NCBI GenBank assembly: GCA_032622095.1
Contig: CP136066.1
Location: forward strand, 7,713,784-7,777,783
Length of the DNA stretch: 64,000 nucleotides
Direction of reading: 5' to 3'
Source of the DNA: Siphonodentalium dalli
Taxonomy: Eukaryota > Mollusca > Scaphopoda > Gadilida > Siphonodentaliidae
The notes beneath the pieces were generated by a model. The model ran no database searches, was not told where the DNA came from, and worked only from the letters and a program-made list of their open reading frames with translations. The translations under genes and the position numbers were made by a program. The stretch's first letter is position 1. Every line of letters starts with the position of its first letter. Positions 13,888-43,674 of this stretch are shown here, piece by piece.

Positions 13888-13959
13888 TAGGATATGATAT
13901 CTCCTTGTCTAGCTTGCTCCAGTCACATATTTGTGTGTGTGATGATGTATCAAGGGAGA

Positions 13960-14799
13960 TCTCTGTCAAGGATATATTGATGACGGCTGTAACATGAACG
14001 TGTTCAGAAGTATTGTTTGATTCCATATCATAGACATGTGTCGATAATATGAGTTGGAGAGCTTGTTTTGTGCCGAATAGATAGTCAATGACTGCTGTTT
14101 ATTTACCATTGACATGGAAGAAGGTTGGTTGTGAAGACTGTAAAGTTGACAGGCTGTATTCTGTACAGAAGTAATCCAGTTTGGTGTCATGTTCATTCCC
14201 TGGACGAAGTAGCAAGGAGCCATTCATGTCGCCACACAGGAAGATGGCATGAGTTGATCGAATTTTTTTTAATTATTTCTTCTGCTTCAATCAGCGTGGC
14301 TAAGTAATTAGCTGTAGAGTGGCCGCCTCTGTCAGGTAGGTAACCGCAGATAATACAAATCGGTGGGAGATGTGGCAACCTCCAAAACAACAGGTATTGT
14401 GCCTCCATCTGGATGTTTACGTATCTTGACATTGAGCGTTTTATTGTAGAGGATAGCAATTCCTCCATATCCACGTGGTACTTGCGTAGGAGGTAAAGGA
14501 TCTTCTGAGCCTACTGCTTTAGCATGGGCGGCGTGAGTTTTTGAGATTGTGGTAAGTATTTCAAGTTGAAAGTCGAACAGCCAGTAGTGTCCGTGTATGC
14601 ACATGAAGTCGACGGTATTCAGAATGTGTTGTAGATATGTGAGGTTGCTCTGTACATTCTTGATATTGAATGTCCCTATGACAATCTTCTCCGGCCTATG
14701 TTGGTTGATGCACGGCCGTGCTTTAAAAAAGACTGCAAGTTGGCTGAGGTTGGGGTTCCGTGTCGTCATACATGGGCTTTCTCGGACTATGGTGTTCAT
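13960..14799 (-). pseudogene. LINE ORF2, endonuclease (APE) part, broken
   Basis: From a plausible ATG at 14799 the frame reads into IVIGTFNIKNVQSNL, the first APE motif (the GTFNI-type strand with its catalytic Asn). A diverged HWLF motif (HGHYWLFDF) and a GYGGIAILYN block follow. After frameshifts come GYLPDRGG and, in a third frame near 14225, CGDMNGS, the GDMN metal and DNA-binding motif. At least two frameshifts separate these blocks. In the family this domain nicks target DNA to prime reverse transcription. It cannot be made intact here. Confidence 0.85.
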
Positions 14800-16799: not shown

Positions 16800-17945
16800 G
16801 CCCAACAATGCGATATATGTGTAGCAAGGAGTGACGCACTGCGATGTATGGGTAGCAAGGAGTTACACGACGTGATATATGGGTAGCAAAGAGTGACACG
16901 GCACGAAGTATGGGTAGCAAGGAGTGACACGACGTGGTGTGTGGGTAGCAAGGAGTGACACGACGTGATATATGGGTAGCAAGGAGTGACACGGCGCGAT
17001 TTATGGCTAACAATGAGTGACACGGCGCGATTTATGGCTAACAAGGAGTGACACGACGCGATGTATGGGTAGCAAGGAGTGACACGACGCGATGTATGGG
17101 TAGCAAAGTGTGACACGTCGCGATCTATGGGTACCAAGAAGTGACACGACGCGATATATGGGAAGCAAAGTGTGACACGACGCGAGTTATGGCTAACAAG
17201 GAGTGACACGACGCGATGTATGGGTAGCAAGGAGTGACACGGCGCGATGTGTGGGTAGCAAGGAGTGACACGACGCGAGATATGGGTAGCAAGGAGTGAT
17301 ACGGCGCGATTTATGGCTTACAATGAGTGACACGGCGCTATTTATGGCTAACAAGGAGTGACACGACGCGATGTATGGGTAGCAAGGAGTGACACGACGT
17401 GATATATGGGTAGCAATCTGTGACACAGCGCGATTTATGGCTAACAAGGAGTGACACTATGCGATGTATGGGTATCAAGGATTGACACGACGTGGCGTGT
17501 TGGTAGCAAGGAGTGACACGGCGCGTTGCATGCGTAGCAAGGAGTGACACGACGTGACATATGTGTAGCAATGCGTGACACGGCCCGATTTATGGCTAAC
17601 AATGAGTGAAACGGCGCGATTTATGGCTAACAAGGCGTGACACGACGTGGTGTGTGGTTAGCAAGGAGCGACACGACGCGATCTACGGGAAGCAAAGAGT
17701 GACACGACCCGATATATGGGTACCAAGGAGTGACACGACGATATATATGGGTAGCAAGGAGATACGACGCGATGTATTGGTAGCAAGGAGTGACACGACG
17801 CGATGTATGTGTAGCAAGGAGTGACACTACGCGATGTATGGGTAGCGAGGAGTGATACGACGCGATGTATGGGTAGCAAAGAGTGACACGCGCGATCTAT
17901 GGTTACCAAGGAGTGACACGACGCGATATATGTGAAGCAAAGAGT
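16800..17945. repeat. 31-bp satellite array (about 37 copies)
   Basis: The unit GTATGGGTAGCAAGGAGTGA plus CACGACGCGAT is 31 bp. Variation is mostly at the CpG-rich ACGACGCGAT block and at GGGTAGCAAGG, with a GGCTAACAAGG subtype. Because 31 is not a multiple of 3, all three frames read through different phases and give spurious frames of 66-145 codons on both strands. These are not genes. The array separates the LINE 5' end from the exon at 17977. Confidence 0.95.
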
Positions 17946-17976
17946 GTTTCCTAGCGATTTGGGGAGTGGTCAGCAG

Positions 17977-21111: not shown

Positions 21112-21904
21112 CTAGCAGGTTAGCCCGCCACTGGCGGCAATCGTCAGAAACATGACAATTTTAAATTTTTTAAATTAATTTTTTTAATTAATTAATTGTT
21201 TTGTTTTTCAATGAGTTAATGATGAGCCCGACGTTGTCCGGGCTATTCAAAAATCAAATTTCAATTCGATAGCTCCACCCGTTTCCAAGATCTGGTCTGC
21301 GCATGCGCGAAGCTGGCGTCGCACGGGCTGGGCGACCCGACAAAATTCGTATCCGGGGCAAGATACATTCACATACCAAATTTTAAGTCGATAGCTCCAC
21401 CCGTTTCCGAGATCTCGTCTGCCGGGATTTCTGAGGAACATTATGCCTATATCACACTTTATATCCACACTAACTACCCCCCTAAGCCCTGACCTAAGTG
21501 TCATACATACTATAACAATGATGCTGAACACTTTGAGGCAATTATATTGCTGAAATGTTGTAAGAGTACTATGGCATCCAATAAATCTCCCCGCATAGGA
21601 AACCACTCAAAATCCCGTATATCTCTCTACAGATACTAATAACGTTGAATGGTAAACAAACGCTCTTTATAGCGATGCGTCAAAAACAAACGCTCATTAA
21701 ATTATCACTTGATCAACCACCGCAGTGCCGTTTTTTGTGACTGAGATTGGAGAACGGGTGCTCTGAGCTTCTCAAAAACGCCGCGACGACGATTCCCGTT
21801 GGATTTTACCTTTAGATAGGAAGTTTGGTCCTGATCGGTCAACCCGTTTTCGATTCTATGAAGTACACATATATATACGGAAGTCTCAAAATATATAGTA
21901 TAGA
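21112..21904 (-). mobile_element. Family-1 Helitron, tandem copy A
   Basis: On the minus strand it starts TCTATACTATATATTTTGAG and ends with a GC-rich hairpin (CCGCC-AGT-GGCGG), a 9-nt tail and CTAG followed by T. These are canonical Helitron ends (5' TC, 3' hairpin plus CTRR, insertion before T). The inside holds two ~119-bp core units (TCGATAGCTCCACCCGTTTC, GCGCATGCGC). No Rep or helicase is present, so it is non-autonomous. This is the outermost 3' end of the array. Confidence 0.85.
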
Positions 21905-22631
21905 CTAGCAGGTTAGCCCGCCACCGGCGGCTTGTCCGAAACATGACATTTTGTTTAATATTTTTTTTTAATTTTTAGCTCCACGCGTTTCAATAAGAAA
22001 AAAATTGTACCCGGTAGCTCCACCCGTTTCCGAGATCTGGTCTGCGCATGCGCGAAGCTGGCGTCGCACGGACTCGGCGACCCGATAAAATTTGTACCCG
22101 GCGCAAGATACATTCACATAGCAAATTTCAAGTCAATAGCTCCACCCGTTTCCGAGATCTCGTCTGCGCATGCGCTGCACGGGCGTCGCACGGGACTCGG
22201 CGACCCGATAAAATTTGTACCCGGCGCAAGATACATTCACATAGCAAATTTCAAGTCGATAGCTCCACCCGTTTCCGAGATCTCGTCTGTGCATGCGCTG
22301 CGCGGGCGACGCACGGGCTCGCCAATACGACAGCGACCACCGCCTGGTCAAACTACACACACGTACCAAGTTTCGTCCCGATCGGTCGAGAATCGTAGAT
22401 TTGTATGAAGTACAACACACACACAAACATAAATATATAAGAGAGATATGTAAATTAGATAGATTGTATCAAAATATATTGGAGATATATGTAAATGATC
22501 TACACACCATTACTGGTGTTTGTCAAGGTTTAGTGGGGTATATCAATACTCATTCACGATCATATCATTGAGGTTCGGAGGGTGTGGGCTATCTCTCGAA
22601 TACACGGAGTTCTCAAAATATATAGTATAGA
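21905..22631 (-). mobile_element. Family-1 Helitron, tandem copy B
   Basis: Same ends as copy A; its CTAG directly abuts the TC of copy A. It has three ~119-bp core units, near 22016, 22134 and 22255. The 5' end is separated from copy C by a 9-bp AAGAAG-type insertion (22632-22640), the only array junction that is not exact. Confidence 0.85.
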
Positions 22632-22640
22632 AGAAGAAGA

Positions 22641-23625
22641 CTAGCAGGTTAGCCCGCCACCGGCGGCGTTTGTCCGAAACATGACATTTTAATATTAATT
22701 TAATGTTTTTTAAATGTAATATATTTTTTTTCTGAATTTTTTTCCGAAACATAAGAGAAACATGACATTTTTTTAATTATTTTGTTTTTATTTAGATTTT
22801 TTAAAAATTTTAATATTAATTTAATGTTTTTTAAATTTAATTTATGTATTTTTAATATTTAATTCTTTTTTATAATTTAATTTTTTTTTTTATTGTTAAT
22901 TTTTTTTTTTTTCTGGCGGAAAAAATCCGATGAATCCACCTTCCTAGGAACGACTTTCAATGAGATAATTCATGGTTCCCGTCCTAAACATTTCGAGAGA
23001 TAACGTTTTGTTGAATAATCCCGTCGTGAAATCTCTCTGCATAATATTTCGAGCTATTTCGAGCGGGTCAATGAAATCCCCCTTTCTAGGAACGACTTTC
23101 AATGAGTTAATTCATGGTACCCGTCCTAAACATTTCGAGCGATAACGTTTTGTTGAATCCCGTAACGTTTTGTTGAATTGTAAACATGTCTCCCGTTCCT
23201 AGGAACGACAGGCCCTCTCTCTGCATAATATTTCGAGCTATTTCGAGCGATAACGTTTTGTTGGATAACATTGAATTGTAAACATGTCCCCCGTTCTCAG
23301 ACTCCCGTTATACAGATAAGTAGACTTATGCCTCTGGGATCTGAATAGATAGCGAAAACACGCTCTTTATATAAACACTGCTGGAAACGAACGCTCTTTA
23401 TATATCAACGCTATTAACTCCGAAGTGCCGATTGCGGTGATTTGGGATTGGAGAAACGGTGCTCTGAGCTTCTCCAAATCGCGACCAAGGCCGTGTCGGT
23501 GGGATTTTACACTTAAATACGAAGTTTGAGCTCAATCTGAACACGCGTTTTGGATTCCACGAAGTACACATATACACACACACACATATATATATATATA
23601 CGGAAGTCTCAAATTATATAGTAGA
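22641..23625 (-). mobile_element. Family-1 Helitron, tandem copy C
   Basis: CTAG end at 22641 with hairpin CCGCC-ACC-GGCGG (plus strand); 5' end at 23625. The inside is T-rich, then has two ~170-bp direct repeats around CCTTCCTAGGAACGAC (near 22940 and 23083). It lacks the 119-bp core, so it belongs to a different internal subtype from A and B. Confidence 0.8.
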
Positions 23626-24461
23626 CTAGCAGGTTAGCCCGCCACTGGCGGCATTTGTCTCATGGCTTTGTTTCAGAAACATGACATTTTTTTAATTTAA
23701 CCAAATTTCAAGTCGATAGTTCCACCCGTCTGGTCTGCGCATGCGCGAAGCTTGCGTCGCACGGGCTCGGCGACCCGATAAAATTCGTACCCGGGGCAAG
23801 ATACATTCACATACCAAATTTCAAGTCGATAGCTCCACCGGTTTCCGAGATCTCGTCTGCGCATGCGCGAAGCTGGCGTCGCACGGACTCGGCGACCCGA
23901 TAAAATTTGTATCCGGCGCAATATACATTCACATAGCAACTTTCAAGTCGATAGCTCCACCCGTTTGCGAGATAACGCATTCTTTGTTTTTCAATGAGTT
24001 AATTCATGGTACCCGTCCTCCCCGTCCTAAACTTCAGAGCGGACAGTCAATTAATCCCATCGTGAAATCCCTCTGCATAATATTTCGAACTCTTAGATCA
24101 ATTCTGCCTTTTTAGTCGCATTTCGTCCGCATCCGTATTTCGGACGCATGGGGTCAGTCGTTTAGCCACGTCCATTGGAATCCGCATCGGACGCATGGGG
24201 TATCGTTTAGCCACGTCCATTGCAATAAAGAGCGTTAATTGTTAAAACCTCCGTATAAGGTATAGATAAAGAGCGTTATTGCCTTTGCGGTGATTTGGGA
24301 GTGGATAAAGGGTGCTCAGAGCTTCTCGAAAACACGACTACGCCGGTGTCGGTGAGATTTTACACTTACATACGAAATTTGATCTCAATCTGTACACGCG
24401 TTTTGGATTCTATGAAGTACACACATACATATATACGAAGTCTCAAAATATATAGTATAGA
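23626..24461 (-). mobile_element. Family-1 Helitron, tandem copy D
   Basis: The CTAG at 23626 abuts copy C exactly; the 5' end TCTATACTATATATTTTGAG is at 24461. It carries the 119-bp core units (near 23705 and 23825) and also part of the subtype-C sequence (TTCAATGAGTTAATTCATGG). It may therefore be a recombinant between the two subtypes. Confidence 0.8.
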
Positions 24462-25859
24462 CTAGCAGGTTAGCCCGCCACTGGCGGCATTCGTCCCATG
24501 GCTTTGTTCGAAAAAGCAATTGCAACAGGTTCCGATACACTTGTGCTGCATTTGTTTAATTATATGTTTAGTTATTTTTGTTTTTTATTTTTTAATATGA
24601 ATTTAAAGTTTTTTAAATTTAATATATATTTTTTTCTGAATTGTTTTTTTATTTTTAAATTTTTTAAATTTTAAATTGTTTTAATTAAATTTTTTGTTTC
24701 TGGCGGAAAAATTTACCCGTAGAAATCCCCCCTTCCTAGGAACGACAGACAACGCTCGAGCGATAACATTGCATTGAATTGAAAACAAACGCTTCCCGTC
24801 GTGAAATGTCTCTACATAATATTTCGAGCGACAGGCTACAGACTCCCGTCATACAGATAAGTAGATAGCGAAACGAAATTTACCCGTAGAAATCCCCCCC
24901 TTCCTAGGAACGACAGACAACGCTCGAGCGATAACATTGCATTGAATTGAAAACAAACGCTTCCCGTCGTGAAATGTCTCTGCATAATATTTCGAGCGAC
25001 AGGCTACAAACTCCCGTCATACAGATAAGTAGATAGCGAAAACGACGCTCTTTATAGTCATTCACGGTTTGGAGCAACACGCATTTTTTAATGAGTTAAT
25101 TATGTCTTTTTAATCAAGAGGGTATGCCAACGATGTCGTTGTTGTTGGCATTCAGGGCTTGGTGGCCACCCGAAAATTCTTGCCCGAAGATTCTCACATT
25201 GCCGTAAAGAGAAAATTAGCATTAGTAATTTGAACTAATTATTTTCTTGCCAACAATGTCGTTGTTGTTGGTTTTTACGGCTTGGGAGTGACACCCCGCC
25301 TTTACGAGATGGTCAAAGGAGAAGGCAGTGGAAGTCCCGTCAGATTCAGGGACGTATCGCACTGACTCGTAAATTTACTAAATTTTAGCAGCCATATAGC
25401 TGCGTCAGTTAGCACGAATCGAGGGGTGTAAGTTTAGAGCTTGTTTATATGAATGTACTGAAAATAGACTAAGATTTTTCAGCCGTAACAAGAAATGTAT
25501 ATATGAGAAAATGTAAATTCTATATTTTGCGAGGTATTAGCAAGTTTTGGCTCAACGGGTTTAGCAGTTTGAAGTGAATATGGATATAAAAATATACATA
25601 TACAGATATAAAACAATGTAGAGTTACTCCTCTTGGATCGCAAGCGAATATCAATTAACCACGACGTGCCGAATGCGGTGATTTGGAATTGGAGAAACGG
25701 TGCTCTGAGCTTCTTCAAAACGCGACCACGGCCGTGTCGGTGGGATTTTACACTTACATACGAAATTTGAGCTCAATCTGTACACGCGTTTTGGATTCCA
25801 TGAAGTACACACACACATATATATATATATATACGGAAGTCTCAAAATATATATATAGA
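24462..25859 (-). mobile_element. Family-1 Helitron, tandem copy E
   Basis: Exact junctions at both ends. The inside has a 167-bp direct repeat (ATTTACCCGTAGAAATCCCC at 24711 and 24878). A further insertion-like block near 25120-25290 carries a duplicated near-palindrome around GCCAACGATGTCGTTGTTG. It is longer than the other simple copies (1398 bp). Confidence 0.8.
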
Positions 25860-26361
25860 CTAGCAGGTTAGCGCGCCACCGGCGGCGTTTGTCCGAAACA
25901 TGACATTTTTTTAATTATTTTGTTTTTATTTATATATTTTTAAAAATTTTAATATTATGTTGTTTTTTTTTAATATTAATTTAATGTTTTTTAATATATT
26001 TATTTAATTATTAATTTAATTTAATTCTTTTTTTATAATTTAATTGTTTAACGACAGACAACGCATTCTTTGTTTTTCAATGAGTTAATTCATGGTACCC
26101 GTCCTAAACTTCCCCGTTATTTAACCTGCCCGTGGCCATTGAGATGAAATCCCCCCTTCCTAGGAACGACAGACAACGCATTCTTTGTTTTTCCTTTTTT
26201 TTTTAACCTGCCCGTACCCGTCCTAATGTCATGAAATCTCTCTGCATAATATTTCGAGCGATAACATTGCATTGCATTGAAAACAAACGCTTCCCGTCGT
26301 TAAATCTCTCTGCGATAACATTGCATTGAATTGAAAACAAACGCTTCCCATCGTGAAATCT

Positions 26362-29300
26362 TAGGCCATGGGCCGAACCCCAAAAAGTGCTCTAGAAAAT
26401 GAGTTTTTTGTAACAGATAGGCAACTACAATGTTTTTATTTTTTAATGTGTAGATAACCATCAACTTCCAAAATGGCTAATGTTCAGACCTAGAAAGTTG
26501 CACATTGTTTCAGAAATGAGGGTTTTGTGGCACATTTTTCAGTAATTTCTCTATAACATTTTGATATTTTCCTATGTAAATAATTTCATGCGTTAAAGTG
26601 TAATTTTCATGCCCAATGCGACCACTAATTAATAGAGATTCGATACCATCAATAAAACACCCATCGATTGAGAATTCGAGCATTATGACGACATTTAAAA
26701 ATAAAAATATTCAACATTCCATAAAACTAGAGTTATCATTCTTGAACAATGATTGAGTATAGAGTTACGTTCCTTGATTCTGAAGTAAGTATCGACCGAA
26801 AAACGGCCAAAAACTCGACACAAAAACTGATATTTGGAGATTGTGGACCAAAGTGACTTCAGAGTTAATATTTTTATGCCATATATAAATAAATTTCATG
26901 TTCAACAGACTTCATTATAGTGCGGAATATTTGAAAATCGTCACAAATTTCCAAAATATAATACTTCATCTGTTGGTAGCTGCTTGACACACGACTCACT
27001 GAAAATAATACATATATATCACATGAGTTGTTGGCGTGATCTGCTGCACTCCGGCCTCTAATTAAATTGGCCGCCGATAGCTAAAATCTCAAACGAATGT
27101 TACATTCAGATTTATGGGCCAATTCCAGACGGTAATCATCAGTTTTATTACAGCTATAATGACAAGATTGATGTACATAATTTTGAAAGACACATCCATT
27201 CAGAGGCGGACTGGGCCAAAAAACCGGCCCGGGAAATTAATATAATACCGGCCCATCTGCCGAAGGAATTGCCAAAGCGCAGAGCGCCGAGTGGGGGAGG
27301 GTCTCTGTTTGGGGGTGACCACCTTGGGAAATTCCACTACACCCCCCTTGAATCAGCCCGGAATCAGACCAAATACATGTTTTTGCATAATTCCATATGC
27401 ACCTCAGTGATCTGGCCTAATATCCTATATATTCATAAACCATGGTTCTATATATTCCCGGTATGAGACCATTCAGATAGTTTTACCTGAAAAATTGCAT
27501 TAATTCTAACTCTAGACAAATGCACATGGCTACGGACAAGAGAACATGACACACCGGATGTCCATGATTGTTCGGCCCGGGGTGAGAAAATTTTGAAAAC
27601 TATACAAGAAAATCGCCAATCCTAGCATCTAGGCTGGCCTCAACTGAAGCGTTCCTATTGTGTTGGAATTTCAATTGGGGGAGTGTCCGGGAGGGGTGCC
27701 TGAGAATGTTTTTGGATTTACAGCTGGGAGTTATACCGTTAAAATGTCGAGATTAACGGGGTCTTTACGTACGCCTCTGCATCCATTGCACATCGCCCGC
27801 AAACACCGGCATTACACCAGATGGGCTGATATATACTTATCTTGTACAAAATTGTGTTGTTATGCATTAAAAAATCACTTCGACTCCCCGTGTACATTTT
27901 AAATAATATATACAGGGGGTCGGAAAAAAATGCGGGACACAACGTACCGGGGGTGGGGGGGGGGGGGGTACCTAGGCGTCAAAACTTTACACGTAAAAAA
28001 AATTCTTATTCACTTAGGGGGGTTGTCGGAAAAAATTTGCATGTAATTTTTTTCCAGATATGTATTTTCAGACTCACAACTTCAATTTTCTCTCATTTTA
28101 TAGAATATGGATTAACCTTAATATATACATGAGTAGTTCAATCCACCTAAAACAATTTTGGATAACCATTGTCTTGGTTTACATGTGATATTGACCCCAT
28201 TAACCCTCTTAATAATGCCGACTATGTCAGTGTCTACCAGTCGAATGCAGAATTCTACCCTGCGATCGCTTATCTGGCAAATTTTTACTGCAGAACTATC
28301 CCATGTATTAAACTATTTCTCCTCAAATGGTATCAGAAAACAGTTATATGCTGGTATCTCACTCATCTCATTTGCATCTTTTTCAAAGTCGAGGTAATGA
28401 CTAGTTGTCATTTTTTTAAAGTGCATACAAAGCGTTGCGATAACCAATATACATGTTTGTACATGTCACGACATCACGAGGTACAAATCAGCGTTCTACT
28501 GGTAGACAATGACCAGTTTAGTCATAATAATCTAAACTAAGTTACCAAGCACCTTCTCGTGAATTGTATGCTCCGGTGTTTTTTTCTGTTTCCGGTCAAA
28601 CCGAGTTGTTGTCCGGCTGGGGTAGAAAACAGTTTTTTCCACCCTGTGTCTGCAGTTTTTGTCCGGCCCCCCCTCTGATATATAGAGTTAATAGTGCAGT
28701 GGAGCGCGTCACAAGCTCAGAGGTATAAATTATGCAAGTACATATACAAATAGGCCTATAGACGACTTCATACATGTCAGACTGTTGTAGAGAACTATAA
28801 TTTATATCTGAATATAAAACGCAACTTAATGTGGCTTTAATGCCGACTAACCATTTATATAGGAACGAGTGTTGTTGAATTTAAAGAGACACCCAGAGAT
28901 CTAGACTATATATGTAGTATAATAAGTTTTACATTTCTGATTTAATGACCAGTTCGATGCACTGGCAATTTAAGAATATTTGAACGCAAATGTATATTTT
29001 GAGACGATTTTTTTCTCTTGCAAAACACCAATATGTATAGAGCTATGTATTTTACTGGGATATTGCTTAAATACCATGTGATTAGCTGAGGGGAATTATG
29101 ACATGTGTGCTGATACGAATTTTTATTAATGCGAATTAAATTCTCGGAACAGTATTTTGACAAGCGTGAGTCAAAATGCGATTCCGTGAATCCAACGAGC
29201 CTTGATAAACGTTCACTGAGCACTTTTCACAGGCCGTCAACAAAAACCTCACACAGAACATTTATCGGGTAGGTTTCTCACTAGATCAATTCCGATGAAA

Positions 29301-30076
29301 AACCGCCACTGAATTCTATAAATCAACCAAATGAATAATATGTTGATATACAGACATGAATTACCACTTTGTGTGGGAGAAAATGTCAAACATTGATAAA
29401 CGATACAATCAGTCCGGTATTTCGTTTCTAAAATGTTTCGTTTCCTATTCCGGAAAATAAAAAAACATTGAACAGTGTTCCTCTTGTAAATGTAAAAAAA
29501 TAAGAAATTGTCCTTATTTCGTGGGTATAAATCATACTGGTAAACATATCTAATAAACTATGTAACCCCCGGGACATGATTGTTATCAAAATATGGGATG
29601 ATTTTATTTATTATTGGGTGTAGAATCACCTCCGATGGTAGTAAATCTGATTTTGGTCACACGCCAGCAAACGCTCGGCAATTTGTGCTTCAGGTACATC
29701 GAGTTTTAACCATTGATCGGTGCATGATTTGATCTTATCTCTGCTGGTTTCCGAAGCATTTGTTAATTTAGTGTCACATACATCTTCTAGGTGTATAATT
29801 CCGCGTCCATAATATTCATTGCAATGTAACAAAATATAGATGACAACACTACGGACAACGTCAAAATTACGAATCGGACGCGGAACGAAACTCGGCGATA
29901 TAATAGACTGAGAACCAAATTTAAATCACCACTGGAGACAAAATGTGCAACTTTCCAGGTCTGAACATTTTTAATTCTTATAAAATAGAAGGCAATGAAC
30001 ATATATTCATGAAAAATCCTTAGTTGTCGAACCGTTTCAAACCAATGACAGCTCTCAGCCTTCGGCCCATGGCCTA
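26362..30076. mobile_element. 3.7-kb TIR element of unknown superfamily, inserted in Helitron copy F
   Basis: Perfect 16-bp terminal inverted repeats, TAGGCCATGGGCCGAA (26362-26377) and its reverse complement (30061-30076). The flanks are AAATCT on the left and TCTCCCTGC on the right. Sister Helitron copies carry the unbroken site AAATCTCTCTGC, which implies a 3-bp TCT duplication. No transposase was recognised. A 68-codon minus-strand frame at 29626-29832 is Cys-containing and unrecognised. A 3-bp duplication would fit PIF/Harbinger or CACTA-like elements, but the TIR does not decide it. It carries a smaller nested element at 27913-28677. Confidence 0.65.
27913..28677. mobile_element. Possible hAT-like non-autonomous element nested in the TIR element
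   Basis: The left end CAGGGGGTCGGAAAA and the inverted right end CAGAGGGGGGGCCGGACAAA match with small gaps. CAG-G-rich ends are common in hAT elements. ATATATA flanks both ends, but in AT-rich sequence this could be chance and it is one base short of the usual 8. A G homopolymer run lies at about 27954-27968. No coding region was recognised. Confidence 0.4.
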
Positions 30077-32275
30077 TCTCCCTGCATAATATTTCGAGTC
30101 TGCCGTACCCGTCCTAATGTCATAATATTTCGAGCGATACCATTGCATTGAATTGAAAACAAACGCTTTCCGTCGTGAAATCTCTCTGCATAATATTTCG
30201 AGCGACTCCCGTCATACAGATAAGTAGATAGCGAAAACGACGCTCTTTATATAGACACTGCGGAAAACGAACGCGCTTTATATATCAACGCTTTTAATCC
30301 CGAAGTGCCGATTGCGGTGATTTTGATGATTGGGAAGGGAGAAACGGTGCTCTGAGCTTCTCCAAAACGTGACCACGGCGGTGTCCGTGGGATTTTACAC
30401 TTATATACGAAATTTGAGCTCGATGGGTGCAGTCGTTTTCGATTCTATAAAGTAGACACATATATATATATATATATATATATATCTATATCTATATTTG
30501 CGAATGTCTGTCTGTCTGTCTGTCTGCCTGTCTGTGTTCTATAGAAATTCACAGGGGACCATCTATATGATGCCAAAGGGGTCTACTAGGAGTAGCTTTT
30601 TTACGAGAAAGATAATGGTCGGGGTTAGAATTTTCTAAAGTGACGCCGTTGTTGTCAGGGGCAGAAAAGGGGGAGGGGCAGAAACAAAATTTGTCGCCGA
30701 TTGCCACCAAACTTATATATAATCATCCCCATAATATGAGGAATCTAATGGCGTGGTTTAAATATGGTAACAGTCGCGCCGTTCGCGTCAGGGCTGCCCG
30801 GAAAGGGGGGGGGGGCAGATTTTGTTCTGCCGCCGATTGCCACGAAACATACATATAATCATCCCCATGATATGAATAATCAAACGGTGTGGTTTAGATA
30901 TGTCAAACGTGGCGTCGTTTGAGTCAGGGATGAACGGAAGGGGAGAGGGGCACCAAAATTGATAAAACTAATTTTAGCGCCGATTTCCACCAAATTGATA
31001 TATATTCTTCTTCATGATACAAGGAATCTAATTGTGCGATTTAACAACGCCAAATTGTTGTTTTTGGATGAGAGATTGGTAGGGGGTGGGCACTAAATTT
31101 GATAATAAATCGCCGATTGCCATCACACTTATACAAAATCATCCCCATGGTATGAGGAGTCTAATGGTGTGGCTTTTATCTCTCAAATGTGGCCTCATTC
31201 GAGTCAGGGTTGCATTGAAAGGGACAGGGGCACCACCAAAATTGATGCACAATTTAGCGCCAATTTTCACCAAATTGATACACGTTCTTATCCATGATAC
31301 GATGAATCTAATCGTGATTTAAAGACGCCATAGTGGTGCTGTTTGGGTGAGAGATGGAGAAGGGAGGGATTGGCACCAAATTTGATAAAAAAAATTGTTT
31401 AGTCGCCGATTATCACCAAACTTATAAACAATCATCTCCATGATATCAGGAGTGTAATCGTGTGGTTTAATGATGTCCCAACTGGGGCCATTCGAGTCAG
31501 TGGTGTATATAGATGAGAGGGACACACAAAATTATATCTATATGTTTAGTGCCGATTTCCACCAGATTGATACATAATCTTATCGTGTGGTTTAAATACA
31601 CCAAATTGGTACCCTATGGGTGAGAGATATGGGGACCTTAAATTTGATACGAATTTGTATACGCGCCAATTTTCACCAATTTCATATATATGCATCTCTA
31701 ATCTCTAATGAGTCTTAGTGTGTGCAGCTTGAGTCCGAAAAAGGGACGGGAGGGTAACCAAAACTGATACAAAATATTTTTAGTACCAATTACCATCAAA
31801 TTCAGACACGTTCTTCTCAAATGATACAAGAAATAAAATCGTGTTGTCTGTCTGTCTTTTTGTCTGTCTGTGTGCGTTCTATATATAACTTCACGCGGTA
31901 CAATCGAGATGGCACCAAGGTGTTCTAAGAGGGGTAACTTTTTACAAGGAAGATAATGGTGCGGGTTAAAATTTTCTAAAATGACGCTGTTGGTGGGAGG
32001 GGAAATTTAAAAAATATTGTGAAATAGTTTTGTCGCTGATTTCCACCAAACGAATACATAATCACCTTCGCAATATGGCGTTGTTCGAGTCAGCGTTGCA
32101 TCAACAATTGATTTAATAAACCAAATTCCACCAAATTCATACAGGTTTTTCTCTAATGATATACCATGAATTAAATCACATTTGGTGTCGTTTGCGTCAC
32201 GTATGGCGAGCGGTTATGCACTATCATTGATAAGATTGCTATTCGCCGATATCCACATATAAGTTACTAGCAGGG

Positions 32276-33302
32276 TTACCCGGCGTTGCCCAGGTTAATG
32301 TATGCTGTGGATATTTGTTGGGAATAGAGAATGCTCTTGCTTAAAGTGTTATACGTTTTCTCATAAATTATATATTCAAATAGCATCACAAAACATAATT
32401 ATTACAGTCATGGAATATAAGTAGTGGCTCACCTTGTCAATTGTCATTCTGTTTATCGCGATTAATCCGTTCCACCAATAATGAAGTATTTATTTATTTA
32501 CAACTGCGTATACATTAGACGTTATAATATGATACATGGACATCATAAACACATTAGTTCGATAACAGATGATAATTGGGTTTTACATATTGAGATGTAT
32601 CAATCAATCTAGTGGGTTGGACTAAGATCTCGAGGACACCTGCTTATCATATCTCCATGAAGATACAGCTGTTTCAAAGAAATTTCCAGGTGCTTCTCTG
32701 TTAATGGTGCTATATATTGGCTAAATATTCTTAGTTTAAACGAAATGTTGCTGTGCAGATATATAATCTACATGTGCCAGGCACAGAGCGAGATTTTGAG
32801 TTGTTTATGTCGGTCGATGAGTCTGTTCTAAAACCCTTGTCAGATGTCAGTATTGGTAGGATCCTGAAAAGTATGTGCTACTAACTGCATTTTCTTGTAT
32901 ATCAGAAGAAACTATATTTGACTGCACACTGTGACCACTATTTTTGAACAGGCCTTCCATATCTCTTGACAAATTGTAACTTTTTGTGGAAACTGTATTG
33001 AATGGAACAGACTAAATTTTGTTATTATATATATGCAATCCTCTGACGGTTCGTGGTCTCTCAGTTTGCACGAATATATGTATCTCTTCAATAGAATGAT
33101 AAATATACGTTTAATGTTTCTTCTAGTTATATCTTTTTGCTAGCTCATTGTGTGAATGCCTTGATTGCCATTCCCATATAAATATGACTGTTAAGAAGAT
33201 ATAATTGTTCAAGTGACTTATGTGGGTCACCATATGTCGGGATTGTGAAATGTGAACGCCCAACTACTTAAAATGATATGGAGATGGCCTGGTGACTGTA
33301 TA
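32276..33302 (-). repeat. Inverted copy (B') of the 3' module of the family-2 Helitron
   Basis: It starts ACTAGCAGGGTTACCC and ends GGCCTGGTGACTGTATA; 35071-36102 is the same sequence reversed. The single copy at 7789-10301 and the unit at 33303-36102 both show the uninverted order, so this unit is the changed one. See the finding on its breakpoints. Confidence 0.85.
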
Positions 33303-36102
33303 TCTATATCTATATTTGCGAATGTCTGTCTGTCTGTCTGTCTGTGTTCTATAGAAATTCACAGGGGACCATCTATATGATGCCAAAGGGGTACACTAGG
33401 AGTAGCTTTTACGAGAAAGATAATGGTCGGGGTTAGAATTTTCTAAAGTGACGCCGTTGTTGTCAGGGGGCAGAAAAGGGGAGGGGCAGAAACAAAATAT
33501 GTCGCCGATTGCCACCAAACTTATATATAATCATCCCCATAATATGAGGAATCTAATGGCGTGGTTTAAATATGGCAAAAGTCGCGCCGTTCGCGTCAGG
33601 GGTGCCCGGAAGGGGGGGGGCAGATTGTTTTTCTGTCGCCGATTGCCACGAAACATACATATAATCATCCCCATGATATGATTAATCCAACGGTGTGGTT
33701 TAGATATGTCAAAAGTGGCGTCGTTTGAGTCAGGGATGAACGGAAGGGGAGAGGGGCACCAAAATTGATAACACGAATTTTAGCGCCGATTTCCACCAAA
33801 TTGATATATATTCTTCTTCATGATACAAGGAATCTAATTGTGCGATTTAACAACGCCAAATTGTTGTTTTTGGATGAGAGATTGGGAGGGGGTGGGCACT
33901 ATATTTGATAATAAGTCGCCGATTGCCATCACACTTATACAAAATCATCCCCATGGTATGAGGAGTCTAATGGTGTGGCTTTTATCTGTCAAATGTGGCC
34001 TCATTCGAGTCAGGGTTGCATTGAAAGGGACAGGGGCACCAAAATTGATGCACAATTTTTTTAGCGCCAATTTCCACCAAATTGATACACGTTCTTATCC
34101 ATGGTACGATGAATCTAATCGTGATTTAAAGACGCCATAGTGGTGCTGTTTGGGTGAGAGATGGAGAGGGGAGGGATTGGCACCAAATTTGATAAAAAAA
34201 ATTGTTTAGTTGCCGATTATCACCAAACTTATAAACAACCATCTCCATAATAGCAGGAGTGTAATCGTGTGGTTTAAGGATGTCACAACTGGGGCCATTC
34301 GAGTCATTGGTGTATATAGATGAGAGAGACACAAACAATTATATATATATGTTTAGTGCCGATTTCCACCAGATTGATACATAATCTTATCGTGTGGTTT
34401 AGATACACCAAATTGGTACCCTATGGGTGAGAGATATGGGGACCTTAAATTTGATACGAATTTGTATACTCGCCAATTTTCACCAATTTCATATATATGC
34501 ATCTCTAATCTCTAATGAGTCTTGTGTGTGCAGCTTGAGTCCGAAAAAGGGACGGGAGGGTAACCAAAACTGATACAAAATATTGTTAGTACCAATTACC
34601 ATCAAATTCAGACACGTTCTTCTCAAATGATACAAGAAATAAAATCGTGTTGTCTGTCTGTCTTTTTGTCTGTCTGTGTGCGTTCTATATATAACTTCAC
34701 GCGGTACAATCGAGATGGCACCAAGGCGTTCTAAGAGGGGTAACTTTTTACAAGGAAGATAATGGTGCGGGTTAAAATTTTCTAAAATGACGCTGTTGGT
34801 GGTTGGGGAAATTTAAAAAATATTGTGAAATAGTTTTGTCGCTGATTTCCACCAAACGAATACATAATCACCTCGCAATATGGCGTTGTTCGAGTCAGCG
34901 TTGCATCAACAATTGATTTAATAAACCAAATTCCACCAAATTCATACACGTTTTTCTCTAATGATATACCATGAATTAAATCACATGTGGTGTCGTTTGC
35001 GTCACGTATGGCGAGCGGATATGCACTATCATTGATAAGATTGCTATTCGCCGATATCCACATATAAGTTATATACAGTCACCAGGCCATCTCCATTTTA
35101 AGTAGTTGGGCGTTCACATTTCACAATCCCGACATATGGTGACCCACATAAGTCACTTGAACAATTATATCTTCTTAACAGTCATATTTATATGGGAATG
35201 GCAATCAAGGCATTCACACAATGAGCTAGCAAAAAGAGATAAATAGAAGAAGCATTAAACGTATATTTATCATTCTATTGAAGAGATACATATATTCGTG
35301 CAAACTGAGAGACCTCGAACCGTCAGAGGATTGCATATATATAATAACAAAATTTAGTCTGTTCCATTCAATACAGTTTCCACAAAAAGTTACAATTTGT
35401 CGAGAGATATGGAAGGCCTGTTCAAAAATAGTGGTCACAGTGTGCAGTCAAATATAGTTTCTTCTGATATACAAGAAAATGCAGTTAGTAGCACAAGACT
35501 TTTCAGGATCCTACCAATACTGACATCTGACAAGGGTTTTAGAACAGACTCATCGACCGACATAAACAACTCAAAATCTCGCTCTGTGCCTGCCACATGT
35601 AGCTGATATATTTGCACAACAACATTTCGTTTAAACTAAGAATATTTAGCCAATATATAGCACCATTAACAGAGGAGCACCTGAAATTTCTTTGAAACAT
35701 CTGTATCTTCATGGAGATATGATAAGCAGGTGTCCTCGAGATCTTAGTCCAACCCACTAGATTGATTGATACATCTCAATATGTAAAACCCAATTATCAT
35801 ATTTTATCGAACTAATGTGTTTATGATGTTCATGTATCATATTATAACGTCTAATGTATACGCAGTTGTAAATAAATAAATACTTCATTATTGGTGGAAC
35901 GGATTAATCGCGATAAACAGAATGACAATTGACAAGGTGAGCCACTACTTATATTCCATGACTGTAATAATTATGTTTTGTGATGCTATTTGAATATACA
36001 ATTTATGAGAAAACGTATAACACTTTAAGCAAGAGCATTCTCTATTCCCAACAAATATCCACAGCATACATTAACTTGGGCAACGCCGGGTAACCCTGCT
36101 AG
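33303..36102 (+). mobile_element. Complete family-2 Helitron-like unit
   Basis: 2.8 kb from TCTATATCTATATTTGCG to the 3' CTAG. The 3' end has GGC-AAC-GCC before GGGTAACCCTGCTAG, a weak hairpin at the usual place. The first 1.77 kb is a run of degenerate ~150-bp units, each with CACCAAA, AATCATC, GAGTCTAATGG-like and GAGTCAGGG blocks. The last 1.03 kb is unique to the family. Small frames in it are not conserved in the diverged copy at 7789-10301, so no gene is called. Confidence 0.75.
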
Positions 36103-36141
36103 TATATATATATACGGAAGTCTCAAAATATATAGTATAGA

Positions 36142-36913
36142 CTAGCAGGTTAGCCCGCCACCGGCGGCGTTTGTCCGAAACATGACATTTTTAAAATTAT
36201 TTCGTTGGTTACAAACATGACATTTTTAAAACTATTTTGTTTTTATTTATTTATTTATTTATTTTTTTTTAATATTAATTTAATGTTTTTTAAATTGAAT
36301 ATATTTTTTTTCTGAATTTTTAAAAACTTTTTTATTTTAAATTGTTTTAATTAATTTTTTTGTTTCTGGCGGAAAAAATTACCCGATAAAATCCCCCCTT
36401 CCTAGGAACGACAGACAACGCATTCTTTGTTTTTTTCTTTTTAACCTGCCCGTACCCGTCCTAATGTCGTGAAATATCTCTGCATAATATTTCCAGCGAT
36501 AACATTGCATTGAATTGAAAACAAACATTTCCCGTCGTGAAAATCTCTCTCCGATAACATTGCATTGAATTGAAAACAAACGCTTCCCGTCGGGAAATCT
36601 CTCTGCATAATATTTCGAGTCTGTCGTACCCGTCCTAATGTCGTGAAATCTCTCTGCATAATATTTCGACAGATAACATTGCATTGAATTGAAAAAAACG
36701 ACGCTCTTTATATAGACACGGCGGAAACGAACGCTCTTTATATATCAACGCTATTAACCCCGAAGTGCCGATTGCGGTGATTTTGATGATTGGGAAGGGA
36801 GAAACGGTGCTCTGAGGTTCTCCAAAACGCGACCACGGTGGTGTCCGTGGGATTTTACACTTATATACGAAATTTGAGCTCGATCCATCAACGTGTTTTC
36901 GATTCTATGAAGT

Positions 36914-36950
<37 letters not shown>

Positions 36951-36975
36951 GAAGTCTCAAAATATATAGTATAGA
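36142..36975 (-). mobile_element. Family-1 Helitron, tandem copy G
   Basis: CTAG at 36142 with hairpin CCGCC-ACC-GGCGG; the 5' end at 36975 follows a (TA)n tract. The inside has several direct repeats around GCATAATATTTCGAG and AACATTGCATTGAATTG. Confidence 0.8.
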
Positions 36976-38499
36976 TAGCAGTTTATCCCGCCACCGGCGG
37001 CGTTTGTCCGAAACATGACATTTTTTTAATTTTTGTTTTTTTATTTATTTATATATATTTTTTTTTAATATTATGGTTTTTTTTAGTTTTTAATATTAAT
37101 TTAATGTTTTTTAATATATTTATTTAATTATTAATTTTATTTAATCTTTTTTTTATAATTTAATTGTTTAACGACAGACAACGCATTCTTTGTTTTTCAA
37201 TGAGTTAATTCATGGTACCCGTTCTAAACTTCCCCGTTATTTAATCTGTCCGTGGCCATTGAGATGAAATCCCCCCTTCCTAGGAACGACAGACAACGCA
37301 TTCTTTGTTTTCCTTCTTTTTTTAACCTGCCCGTACCCGTCCTAATGTCATGAAATCTCTCTGCATAATATTTCGAGCGATAACATTGCATTGCATTGAA
37401 AACAAACGCTTCCCGTCGTTAAATCTCTCTGCGATAACATTGCATTGAATTGAAAACAAACACTTCCCGTCGTGAAATCTCTCGGCATATTATTTCGAGT
37501 CTGCCGTACCCGTCCTAATGTCATAATATTTCGAGCGATAACATTGCATTGAATTGAAAACAAACGCTTTCCGTCGTGAAATCTCTCTGCATAATATTTC
37601 GAGCGACTCCCGTCATACAGATAAGTAGATAGCGAAAACGACGCTCTTTATATAGACACTGCGGAAAACGAACGCTCTTTATATATCAACGCTATTAACA
37701 CCGAAGTGCCGATTGCGGTAATTTTGATGATTGGGAATGGAGAAACGGTGCTCTGAGCTTCTCCAAAACGTGACCACGGCGGTGTCCGTGGGATTTTACA
37801 CTTATATACGAAATTTGAGCTCGATGGGTGCAGTCGTTTTCGATTCTATAAAGTACACACACATATAGAATTATTGGACGTTTTGTAATAGCTTTTAACA
37901 GTGCTGCGTGGACCAGTCTCAAATTTTCCTTGTTATAGGAGTACATCATCAAAACGCTATATGAATATAACATTCATGTAGTGGTGTTATTTTTATTGAG
38001 GGTTACAGCGCTGCGACCGAATAGTTTGAATGTGCGTTTCTTAAGTAAAATAGATACTTGGCAGACTGACAATACCCTTCTCCGGACATCTATGTTAATC
38101 CTTCCAACTCTAACTGAATTACTTTGGAATGGTTTATTATTCACCGGGAGGGGTTATCATGACAAATAAGCAGACAACACATAATACAAATGCAGAAGGG
38201 GTCCTATTTGATGGAGGGAAATGTTCAGGTAATGAGTTCAACAAGGTTTTTGAACTAATTATCTGAACATTTCCTAAGGGATAATACTCGTCAGTGAGCA
38301 TTTAATAAAGAAAGAGTTAAATCCTCTAAAAACTCCCATGGTAAAACATACATCCGTACAGGATTCCACGTGGTTATGGTGGCTTGAATGGTGTGGTTGG
38401 TGTCACAGTGTCAGCATTGTTAGTGCGTTTCTGGTATTATGAACAAAACTGTTATAAATTGATTATCTATCTATCTATACTATATATTTTGAGACTTCC

Positions 38500-38549
<50 letters not shown>

Positions 38550-38575
38550 GGAAGTCTCAAAATATATAGTATAGA
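36976..38575 (-). mobile_element. Family-1 Helitron, tandem copy H, 5' part rearranged
   Basis: The 3' end is slightly mutated (TAGCAGTTTATCCCGCCACC; the C of CTAG is lost). The body runs to 37866, where the CA/TA tract is broken by the inverted duplication described at 37867-40200. The 5' terminus TCTATACTATATATTTTGAG is found at 38575 on the far side of the (TA)24 tract. This is the outermost 5' copy of the array. Confidence 0.7.
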
Positions 38576-40200
38576 TAGATAGATAATGAATACCAAAATA
38601 GTGTTTCTCGAGGAGGAATAGTCCACGAACCGCATGCGAGTGGACTATTCCTCCTCTCGGAAAACTATTTTCTCATAGTCAACTCCAAGCCATACATTAT
38701 ATAATACTACATGCATATATGGGGTGGCAAAAGTGATTATGGTTTTTCGGAAAATCGGATTATGCCACCCCAATTGAGACCCTATGTGAAGTTTTCTAGA
38801 ATTTTGCATTTGGTTGGTTCGTGTGACTGTGTTGTTTATCATTAACGTTACTTTACTAATCATACATGGGGTGGCAACACCCCCGTCGACGAAGGTTAAT
38901 TTGTTCACCAGTTTGGAAATAATAAACACAATCAAGGCATATGCGGTATGAGGTGCGACATTCGACCCGGGGGAGGGGTGCAAATTGAGTTAAGCGTTCT
39001 TGGCAGTTTGGTTCAAGGGGTGAAGTTAGAAATTACACATGGACATCCTCAGTCAATGGAAGCCCTCTATGGATACGTCACAATCCACATCCATCTAATG
39101 CTTCAGCGGTTCTGACAACCGTCTAAAACGGAAATACGAAGTCAATTGTTGAAACAGACGATACTAATGGTAGATCGAGCACGTGAACGGTTACGGTCGT
39201 ATCACTGGATACCAATGACCACCAATCAAGGTAAACATATATCAACAACAGTTACGGCCTCCGTCGCATATTTTCCTGTAGTATGTTTCCATTGGTCAAG
39301 CAACTAATATTGTCTTACCCGTCATGCGAACGTGCCATAATTGTCGCTCGAAGCCGTCGTGGACGTCTGAAACGCCGTTCGATTGCGGCATAAGGGGAGT
39401 AACTCAAAACCGTGAGTGGATTGACACAATCGTTATGGGTTACAACGGAGTTGTCTTCCATAGTCTCAGTTCAAACGTTTTAAAGTATATTGTTTTGAGT
39501 GTAACGCTCAGATACTGAAATTTATTGAAATCGAAAAGACTGACACTTGGGGTAAATTTATAGGCAATCACTTCAATAACACCGTGCATTGAATCTGCAT
39601 TTATAACAGTTTGTTCATAATACCAGAAACGCACTAACAATGCTGACACTGTGACACCAACCACACCATTCAAGCCACCATAACCACGTGGAATCCTGTA
39701 CGGATGTATGTTTTACCATGGGAGTTTTTAGAGGATTTAACTCTTTCTTTATTAAATGCTCACTGACGAGTATTATCCCTTAGGAAATGTTCAGACAATT
39801 AGTTCAAAAACCTTGTTGAACTCATTACCTGAACATTTCCCTCCAACAAATAGGACCCCTTCTGCATTTGTATTATGTGTCGTCTGCTTATTTGTCATGA
39901 TAACCCTTCCCGGTGAATAATAAACCATTCCAAATTAATTCAGTTAGAGTTGGAAGGATTAATAAAGATATCCGGAGAAGGGTATGGTCAGTCTGCCAAG
40001 TATCTATTTTATTTAAGAAACGCACATTCAAACTATTCGGTCGCAGCGCTGTATCCCTCAATAAAACTAACACCACTACATGAATGTTATATTCATATAG
40101 CGTTTTGATGATGTACTCCTATAACAAGGCAAATTTGAGACTGGTCCACGCAGCACTGTTAAAAGCTATTACAAAACGTCCAATAATTCTGCCGACCAAT
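37867..40200. repeat. Large inverted duplication centred in a (TA)24 tract
   Basis: 37867-38459 is the inverse of 39599-40200 (about 96% over a 310-bp stretch compared by eye). 38462-38587 is itself a perfect 126-bp palindrome: 39-bp arms around (TA)24, built from two head-to-head Helitron 5' ends. The whole is a long palindrome with its axis near 38524. About 1.01 kb (38588-39598) is present only on the right side. Frames at + 37981-38169 and - 39888-40076 are the same sequence in the two arms and are not supported as genes. Confidence 0.85.
38610..38656. repeat. Perfect 17-bp hairpin
   Basis: GAGGAGGAATAGTCCAC, 13-nt loop, then its reverse complement. The flanks (AATAGTGTTTCTC and CGGAAAACTATT) extend the pairing imperfectly. 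It lies just inside the 1.01-kb segment that interrupts the right arm of the palindrome. Its function is unknown. Confidence 0.8.
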
Positions 40201-42621: not shown

Positions 42622-43674
42622 CATAATGTATATATGGATAGGGTGATATAGTATAATGTATATATGGATAGGGTGATATAGTATAATGTATATATGGATA
42701 GGGTGATATAGTATAATGTATATATGGATAGGGTGATATAGTATAATGTATATATGGATAGGGTGATATAGTATAATGTATATATGGATAGGGTGATATA
42801 GTATAATGTATATATGGATAGGGTGATATAGTATTATGTATATATGAATAGGGTGATATAGTATTATGTATATATGGATAGGGTGATATAGTATTATGTA
42901 TATATGGGTAGGGTGATATAGTATTATGTATATATGTATAGGGTGATATAGTATAATGTATATATGGATAGGGTGATATATTATAATGTATATATGGATA
43001 GGGTGATATAGTATAATGTATATATGGATAGGGTGATATAGTATAATGTATATATGGATAGGATGATATAGTATAATGTATATATGGATAGGGTGATATA
43101 GTATTATGTATATATGGATAGAGTGATATAGTATAATGTATATATGGATAGGGTGATATAGTATAATGTATATATGGATAGGGTGATATAATATAATGTA
43201 TATATGGATAGGGTGATATAGTATAATGTATATATGGATAGGGTGATATAGTATGATGTATATATGGATATGGTGATATAGTATAATGTATATATGGATA
43301 GGGTGATACAGAATAATGTATATATGGATAGGGTGATATAGTATAATGTATATATGGATAGGGTGATATAGTATAATGTATATATGGATAGGGTGATATA
43401 GTATAATGTATATATGGATAGGGTGATATAGTATAATGTATATATGGATAGGGTGATACAGTATAATGTATATATGGATAGGGAGATATAGTATAATGTA
43501 TATATGGATAGGGTGATATAGTATAATGTATATATGGATAGGGTGATACAGTATGATGTATATATGGATAGGGTGATATAGTATGATGTATATATGGATA
43601 GGGTGATACAGTATAATGTATATATGGATAGGGTGATATAGTATAATGTATATATGGATAGGGTGATATAGTAT
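42622..43674. repeat. 30-bp minisatellite, about 35 copies
   Basis: The unit ATAATGTATATATGGATAGG plus GTGATATAGT repeats every 30 bp with few substitutions (mainly TATTATG for TATAATG, and GATACA for GATATA). As 30 is a multiple of 3, the minus strand stays open and gives a 443-codon frame of IILYHPIHIY repeats. That frame lies in the intron of a minus-strand gene and is not called as a protein. Confidence 0.95.

What the first reader, a model, noticed from the sequence alone, without database searches (positions are those of the whole stretch)
21112..38575. Eight non-autonomous Helitrons in head-to-tail tandem with base-exact junctions
Six of the seven junctions checked read CTAG directly followed by TC on the minus strand (21904, 23625, 24461, 25859, 36141, and 36975 with a lost C). 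One has a 9-bp insert (22632-22640). The termini are canonical Helitron ends. The copies differ inside (119-bp core in A, B and D; another core in C and E-H), so the array did not arise by simple amplification of one unit. Repeated insertion at the T after a CTAG end, or rolling-circle concatemers, would explain it. Tandem Helitrons are known elsewhere, but a mixed-subtype array of this size is worth documenting.
Basis: partly seen in the sequence, partly recalled or inferred. Interest (0 to 1): 0.75.

Follow-up and report, generated by a model that had tools for sequence, protein, structure and literature searches.

The report
Genome-wide head-to-tail chains of Helitrons
Eight jumping-gene copies joined end to end turn out to be one of a great many such chains in this genome, most likely built by new copies landing exactly at the edge of old ones.

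Summary
The array is real. Eight minus-strand non-autonomous Helitrons lie head to tail; the seven junctions are CTAG|TC or explained variants (one lost G; one tip lengthened by TCT repeats). Two copies are split by later insertions.

In the 2.23-Gb source genome, 6,611 of 10,907 exact 3' ends run straight into TCT, and 1,232 exact 43-nt junctions exist. In samples from one chromosome, 25 of 40 3' ends and 29 of 40 5' ends abut another Helitron; random insertion predicts about 0.3 abutments.

Six of eight copies are closer to copies elsewhere than to array neighbours. Three Helitron families mix in the chains; the I-to-II junction alone occurs 541 times. RepHel-bearing members sit in arrays as units.

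So the arrays grew mainly by successive insertion at resident boundaries, with some local amplification. The A/B/D core is family II sequence, consistent with end bypass. Tandem or adjacent Helitrons are known from bats, silkworm, maize and plant centromeres; mixed-family arrays as the usual state are, as far as I found, a new variant.

The parts
21112..21904 (-). Copy A, 3'-most unit; family II-like core with a dead internal 3' hairpin (GCCCGGACAACGTCGGGC without GGCTAG); followed by host T
   Evidence: 94-95% full-length relatives elsewhere
21905..22640 (-).
   Evidence: nearest sampled relative 0.963 outside the array
22641..23625 (-). Copy C; 5' tip TCTACTATATAATTTGAG
   Evidence: 94% full-length relative at C3:131613728
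23626..24461 (-). Copy D; family II-derived core
   Evidence: nearest sampled relative 0.947 outside the array
24462..25859 (-). Copy E
   Evidence: nine further places 94-96% identical from position 1, 3 or 7 to 1398
25860..26361 (-). Copy F, 3' piece
26362..30075 (.). Later insertion in copy F: 3.7-kb element with ends TAGGCCATGGGCCGAA and a 3-bp target duplication TCT
   Evidence: read from sequence
30076..30484 (-). Copy F, 5' body piece
30485..33302 (+). Later insertion in copy F: Helitron of another family (X'); its last 1 kb (about 32268-33302) is inverted
33303..36103 (+). Later insertion in copy F: full-length Helitron X, TCTATATCTATATTTGCG ... GGGCAACGCCGGGTAACCCTGCTAG, inserted at A^T; related copy at 7784-10301
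36104..36141 (-). Copy F, 5' tip
36142..36975 (-). Copy G
   Evidence: 92% relative over 1-832 of 834 at C5:4598164
36976..37867 (-). Copy H, body and 3' end (CTGCTA, G lost)
37868..38500 (.). Insertion in copy H; inverted copy at 39599-40190 (97.6%)
38501..38575 (-). Copy H, 5' tip, inside a 134-bp palindrome 38458-38591; preceded by (TCTA)n, A at -1

Best explanation
The region is an array of canonical Helitrons (rolling-circle DNA transposons) that grew by successive insertion of separate copies exactly at the boundary of a resident copy. A RepHel transposase supplied by RepHel-bearing kin brings a new TC...CTAG copy to a resident end. The likeliest landing place is the A^T formed by the host A and the first T of the resident element, which always leaves CTAG|TC. 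Secondarily, a transposase that misses one 3' end (bypass) carries neighbouring array sequence out, which explains why the cores are mixed; and local duplication multiplies some stretches. Shown: the junctions, their excess over chance, mixed families, nearest relatives outside the array, RepHel-bearing elements within arrays, dead internal 3' ends. Inferred: attraction to resident ends, the 5' side as the landing side, the order of events, and which RepHel mobilises which copies.
For: Genome-wide counts: 10,907 exact 3' ends; 6,611 followed by TCT; 1,232 exact 43-nt junctions and 4,087 exact 5' ends; reversed-pattern controls 0 in each. Chance expectation about 0.3. First-listed 40 3' ends on C1: 18 followed by family I, 5 by family II, 2 by family III, 15 by host or other sequence; next base T in 40 of 40; the 17 that continue with TCT all run into a Helitron 5' end. 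First-listed 40 5' ends on C1: 24 preceded by family I (22 by script, 2 by eye), 3 by II, 2 by III, 11 by host; of those 11 the base before the tip (before any TCTA repeats) is A in 10 and G in 1, by eye. Mixed-family junction I|II 541 times. Nearest relatives outside the array for A, B, C, D, E, G. Of 79 abutting pairs in the sample, 57 share under 60%. Open 1,614-aa family II RepHel element between family I units. RepHel element with family I ends inside an array. Dead internal 3' ends in copy A and in the latter element.
Against: Neighbours are more alike than random pairs: 8 of 79 abutting pairs at least 95% alike versus 1.3% of 5,096 between-array pairs, and under-60% pairs are 72% against 91%. 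40 of 98 copies have their nearest sampled relative in their own array. Some arrays are plainly amplified (three identical 1,125-bp copies at C1:5.78 Mb; higher-order repeats at C1:49.03 Mb, and C1:176.76 Mb). F and H are nearest to each other (0.942; best full-length outside match 87%). Mixed junctions could be fewer events if blocks move together. Not every abutting tip is perfect: of 25 abutting 3' ends, 17 continue TCT, 1 TCC and 7 lack the TC tip. In the C1 sample only 17 of 40 continue with TCT, against 61% genome-wide. My test of growth direction gave 27 pairs against 18 and decides nothing.
Confidence: 0.75

Rival explanations
1. Rolling-circle concatemers: the transposase runs past its own terminator several times and inserts a multimer.
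For: Gives exact CTAG|TC junctions; precise head-to-tail circles are reported for Helraiser (passages of PMC4778049 and PMC5876387). Identical or nearly identical neighbours exist (C1:5.78 Mb 1.000, C1:10.6 Mb 0.997).
Against: A multimer is made of one element; here 57 of 79 abutting pairs share under 60%, three families are joined, and 6 of 8 window copies have nearer relatives elsewhere.
Confidence: 0.08
2. Unequal crossing-over or segmental duplication of a chance founder array, as in satellite DNA.
For: Higher-order repeats at C1:49.03 Mb and nine units spaced 3.0-3.7 kb at C1:176.76 Mb.
Against: Most sampled junctions join unlike copies; the subtypes of A, C and E are dispersed over several chromosomes; a founder junction would itself need an explanation, since chance predicts about 0.3 in the genome.
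Confidence: 0.1
3. Blocks of several Helitrons move as one composite element, from the first TC to the last CTAG, so one rare abutment is copied many times.
For: Dead internal 3' ends suggest bypass; 10 ordered subtype pairs occur more than once, 5 of them in more than one array.
Against: Sampled arrays differ widely in order; 541 I|II junctions would need very frequent block movement. The 541 were not extended and clustered here.
Confidence: 0.15

Closest known systems
Tandem Helitrons in the bat Myotis lucifugus and in Bombyx mori (as cited in PMC4067079, passages read; bat case also in PMC2267711)
   Same: Head-to-tail copies; PMC4067079 also says distantly related Helitrons sit directly next to one another in bat and maize, and attributes arrays to a bypassed termination signal
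   Different: Described as clusters or several cases; here 61% of 10,907 exact 3' ends run into TCT and three families interlink
Two adjacent maize Helitrons, AF466202 (PMC2267711, passages read)
   Same: Exact CTAG|TC, unlike contents, argued as consecutive insertion, with the same A^T versus G^T reasoning
   Different: One pair; here long chains with RepHel-bearing members inside
Maize helA insertion near or inside other Helitrons, with damaged inner 3' ends (one passage of PMC3288121)
   Same: A stated preference for the neighbourhood of other Helitrons, and pseudo 3' ends with damaged CTAG
   Different: Near or inside, not base-exact at the boundary in the passage read
[quoted passage not shown]
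   Same: New elements made from pieces of several Helitrons, as the A/B/D core here
   Different: No array origin stated in the passage seen
Rolling-circle amplified centromeric Helitrons of plants (Xiong, Dooner and Du 2016; seen only as cited in PMC5148889)
   Same: Multiple tandem truncated Helitrons
   Different: Paper not read; by its title the explanation is amplification, here most sampled neighbours differ
Helraiser (PMC4778049, PMC5876387, passages read)
   Same: Precise head-to-tail junction in circles; 3' end bypass picks up downstream DNA
   Different: Experimental single element; no array growth shown in the passages read

Membership tests
Helitron (canonical) | 5' end TC, 3' end CTAG preceded by a short GC-rich hairpin | tested here: met
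   CCGCC-[AG]GT-GGCGG hairpin, 9 nt, CTAG; copy F has one changed base in the 18-mer and H three, with the G of CTAG lost
Helitron (canonical) | Insertion between A and T, no target duplication | tested here: met
   A before 10 of 11 host-flanked 5' ends (by eye), G before 1; T after 40 of 40 3' ends. Empty sites were not compared, so absence of duplication is not tested
Helitron (canonical) | Related autonomous element with HUH/Y2 Rep and PIF1-type helicase | tested here: met
   family II element L078: PF14214 and PF05970, GLPHSH and KYVCKY (that these are the catalytic motifs is recalled); family I element L123+L124: PF14214 and PF05970 in one 1,080-aa frame, with a stop between it and the N-terminal part
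Helentron / Helitron2 | T-T target and endonuclease domain | tested here: not met
   A before 10 of 11 host-flanked 5' ends; no endonuclease domain at E 0.001 in the Pfam scans of L078 and L124
Tandem Helitron arrays as in bat and maize | Base-exact CTAG|TC between complete copies | tested here: met
   two of the seven window junctions carry a small variant
Satellite DNA | Homogenised repeat unit | tested here: not met
   57 of 79 abutting pairs share under 60%; a minority of arrays do look homogenised

The most novel reading that the evidence does not exclude
Helitron transposases in this genome actively choose resident Helitron ends, of their own and of kin families, as targets. The arrays are then growing docking sites where terminator bypass shuffles cores between families, a eukaryotic cassette array made of transposons.
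Probability: 0.35. Interest if true: 0.8.

Novelty: new variant of a known kind. Interest (0 to 1): 0.6.

Why it matters
Whether tandem Helitrons come from rolling-circle multimers or from insertion beside a resident has been argued from single cases (PMC2267711). Here more than a thousand exact junctions, three distinguishable families and low divergence (terminal branches of 0 to 0.028 in the sampled clusters) in one assembly make the question countable. If ends attract insertions, that is a target rule for Helitrons beyond A^T, and array read-through becomes a route by which new Helitron cores are assembled.

Tried and rejected
Concatemer of one unit: rejected as main cause (unlike neighbours, mixed families). 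Chance abutment: about 0.3 expected. A two-copy block duplication H-G to F-E, suggested by a 735-bp match at 90% across the junction: dropped, since E and G 5' ends are no closer to each other (82.5%) than E is to C or F (82.5, 83.2%) and E has 96% relatives elsewhere. Growth direction from terminal branch lengths: 27 against 18 pairs, not independent, inconclusive (copies with branches of 0.004 or less were dropped before counting, as were clusters under 5 members). RepHel elements checked for family I 3' ends: of the 5 distal flanks fetched (L123) carries it, 2 carry another end (GGGTAACCCTGCTAG), 2 show no hairpin end in the stretch. The four flank pairs showed other ends, and the L029 RepHel looks truncated. 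Sample limits: the 40+40 end samples are the first places listed, all on C1 and partly from the same arrays; the array comparison used 20 stretches of C1 taken from the junction list, one adjoining stretch (L029), 7 copy-A relatives and the window; copies of 2.6 kb or more, or without a recognised 5' motif, were dropped there. In that sample C and G had their nearest relative within the window array; the whole-genome searches found closer ones elsewhere, so the 40 of 98 is an upper figure. Whole-genome DNA searches score only the best 40 candidates; the RepHel search scored 150 of 457. Literature: searches of the held library; I found tandem and adjacent Helitrons in print but no report of mixed-family arrays as the majority state; most subscription papers are not held. 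Passages of PMC2575219 and PMC4683698 held nothing on tandem or abutting copies.
Full report
What was claimed and what is there. All eight 3' ends and eight 5' tips are there, with zero matches to the 3' motif in 100 shuffles. Five of the seven junctions are plain CTAG|TC. The other two are variants that can be explained: the 9 bases at 22632-22640 are TCTTCTTCT, and tips lengthened by TCT or TCTA repeats recur in other arrays; at 36975/36976 the G of CTAG is missing. The array sits at a normal Helitron target, A before copy H (inside a TCTA run) and T after copy A.

Later damage. Copy F was cut twice. Inside its TA run lie two Helitrons of another family on the plus strand (30485-33302, whose last 1 kb is inverted, and 33303-36103); a further copy lies at 7784-10301. 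Its core holds a 3.7-kb element with inverted ends and a TCT duplication (26362-30075). Copy H is cut by a 600-bp element near a 134-bp palindrome. So the 17.5-kb span contains about 7.5 kb of array.

The genome. The window lies in an unnamed 2.23-Gb genome of nine contigs. The exact 18-nt 3' end occurs 10,907 times, and 6,611 of these continue with TCT. The exact 25-nt 5' end occurs 4,087 times and the exact 43-nt junction 1,232 times. Control patterns read backwards gave 0 each time. Random insertion of this many copies at A^T sites would give about 0.3 abutting pairs. I then read what lies beyond the first 40 listed 3' ends and the first 40 listed 5' ends, all on C1. Downstream of 3' ends: family I in 18, family II in 5, family III in 2, host or other in 15; the next base is T in 40 of 40. 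Of the 25 abutting ones, 17 continue TCT, 1 TCC, and 7 start with a tip that lacks TC (mostly TACTATATAT, as if one TCTA fewer). Upstream of 5' ends: family I in 24 (22 by script, of which 6 through extra TCTA repeats; 2 by eye), family II in 3, family III in 2, host in 11; the host base before the tip is A in 10 and G in 1, read by eye past TCTA repeats. These samples are neighbouring places and not fully independent.

Insertion rather than multiplication. Of the eight window copies, six have their nearest known relative elsewhere: A 95%, C 94%, E 96% and G 92% over the full or nearly full length, B and D 0.963 and 0.947 of the longer length. F and H are nearest to each other (0.942); the best full-length match of H elsewhere is 87%. 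Of 105 sampled copies, 98 could be compared both ways: 40 have their nearest sampled relative in their own array and 58 in another; C and G are among the 40, and the whole-genome searches moved them out, so 40 is an upper figure. Of 79 abutting pairs, 57 share less than 60%, 7 share 60-80%, 7 share 80-95% and 8 share 95% or more; among 5,096 pairs from different arrays, 91% share less than 60% and 1.3% share 95% or more. So neighbours are mostly unlike, but near-identical neighbours are about eight times more common than among random pairs. Local amplification is real but secondary; clear cases are C1:5.78 Mb (three identical 1,125-bp units), C1:49.03 Mb (repeating order of subtypes) and C1:176.76 Mb (nine units spaced 3.0-3.7 kb).

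Mixed families. Family II begins TCTCATATATATTTTGAAGACC and ends GCCCGGACAACGTCGGGC(T/A)CATCGGCTAG. Family III begins TCTATTATATATTTTGGAAGATC (or GAAAGATC) and ends GCCCGGACGAAGTCGGGTCACCTTCTAG (the family names are mine). One chain in L020 reads I|II|III and then host T. The exact I|II junction occurs 541 times, and a II|II junction with the RepHel-type end 42 times, 27 of them in one stretch of C8. Another RepHel family, at C3:17.6 Mb, shows CTAG|TC at two successive ends.

Transposase source. The Helitron_like_N model lists 151 matches, with 150 of 457 candidates scored. At C1:13738700-13748300 a family II element with an open frame of 1,614 aa carries STPR repeats, Helitron_like_N and PIF1 and GLPHSH and KYVCKY motifs. 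A family I 3' end lies just before it, through an 11-nt TCTATCTTCTA run, and a family I copy starts directly after its 3' CTAG. At C4:165021100-165030281 an element ends in the family I 3' end and begins with a family I 5' end (two candidate starts, positions 20 and 1395 of the minus-strand stretch). It carries Helitron_like_N and PIF1 in a 1,080-aa frame, with a 373-aa STPR frame in front, separated by one stop. A family III 3' end lies directly before position 20, and another family I copy directly after its 3' end; both of those junctions read CTAG|TACTATATATT, without the TC. Whether either protein moves the window copies is inferred from shared ends only.

Mixed cores. The family II element of L020 matches B over 325 bp at 87%, D over 193 bp at 89% and A over 167 bp at 91%, and gives no match at E 1e-5 or better to C or E-H. 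Copy A keeps a family II 3' hairpin whose GGCTAG is gone, and the C4 element keeps a family I 3' end damaged to GGCTAACCAGCTCA just before the last one. This is what end bypass in an array would leave; bypass is documented for Helraiser (passages of PMC4778049), and damaged inner 3' ends in maize (one passage of PMC3288121).

Where new copies land. The canonical A^T target at a resident is its 5' edge, host A then TC; a copy placed there leaves CTAG|TC by itself. The other edge would need G^T. This argument is in PMC2267711 (passages). With A before 10 of 11 host-flanked 5' ends, the 5' edge is favoured, but my dating test is inconclusive. The excess over chance implies that ends attract insertions, perhaps because the transposase nicks resident ends; that is inference.

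Known or new. Passages read report tandem arrays in bat and silkworm and adjacent unlike Helitrons in bat and maize (PMC4067079; PMC2267711), a preference of maize Helitrons to insert near or inside others (PMC3288121), one triple in a fungus and tandem centromeric Helitrons in plants (PMC5148889), and cite tandem arrays in plants and bats (PMC5876387). An abstract passage reports silkworm Helitrons made from combinations of others (PMC3789558). The kind is therefore known. What I did not find in searches is a genome where mixed-family chains are the usual state.

Noticed in passing
45105-62204: About 276 copies of a 62-bp tandem repeat fill 17 kb of the window.
   Followed up: no
427-6341: 68-bp tandem repeat, about 87 copies in two adjoining calls.
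   Followed up: no
42623-43674 and 16810-17946: 30-bp repeat (35 copies, 96% matches) and 31-bp repeat (37 copies).
   Followed up: no
30485-36103: Two tandem plus-strand Helitrons of another family; the first has its last 1 kb inverted with the breakpoint at the terminal CTAG.
   Followed up: partly
38458-38591: 134-bp palindrome made of the Helitron 5' tip, its TCTA flank and a TA run.
   Followed up: partly
12077-16474: Broken minus-strand reading frames, one with a PHD-finger match below Pfam's cut-off; looks like a decayed non-LTR retrotransposon (impression only).
   Followed up: no
L078 and L124: RepHel frames carry N-terminal STPR repeats (PF21107).
   Followed up: no
G000 C8:44075064-44559051: 27 of the 42 exact family II junctions with the RepHel-type end lie within 0.5 Mb, all on the plus strand: a satellite-like stretch (counted by eye).
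   Followed up: no
G000 C1:114638548 and L033: A family III-type 3' end lies about 3.7 kb after the Helitron_like_N start of a RepHel frame of 1,697 aa, so family III may have its own RepHel.
   Followed up: no
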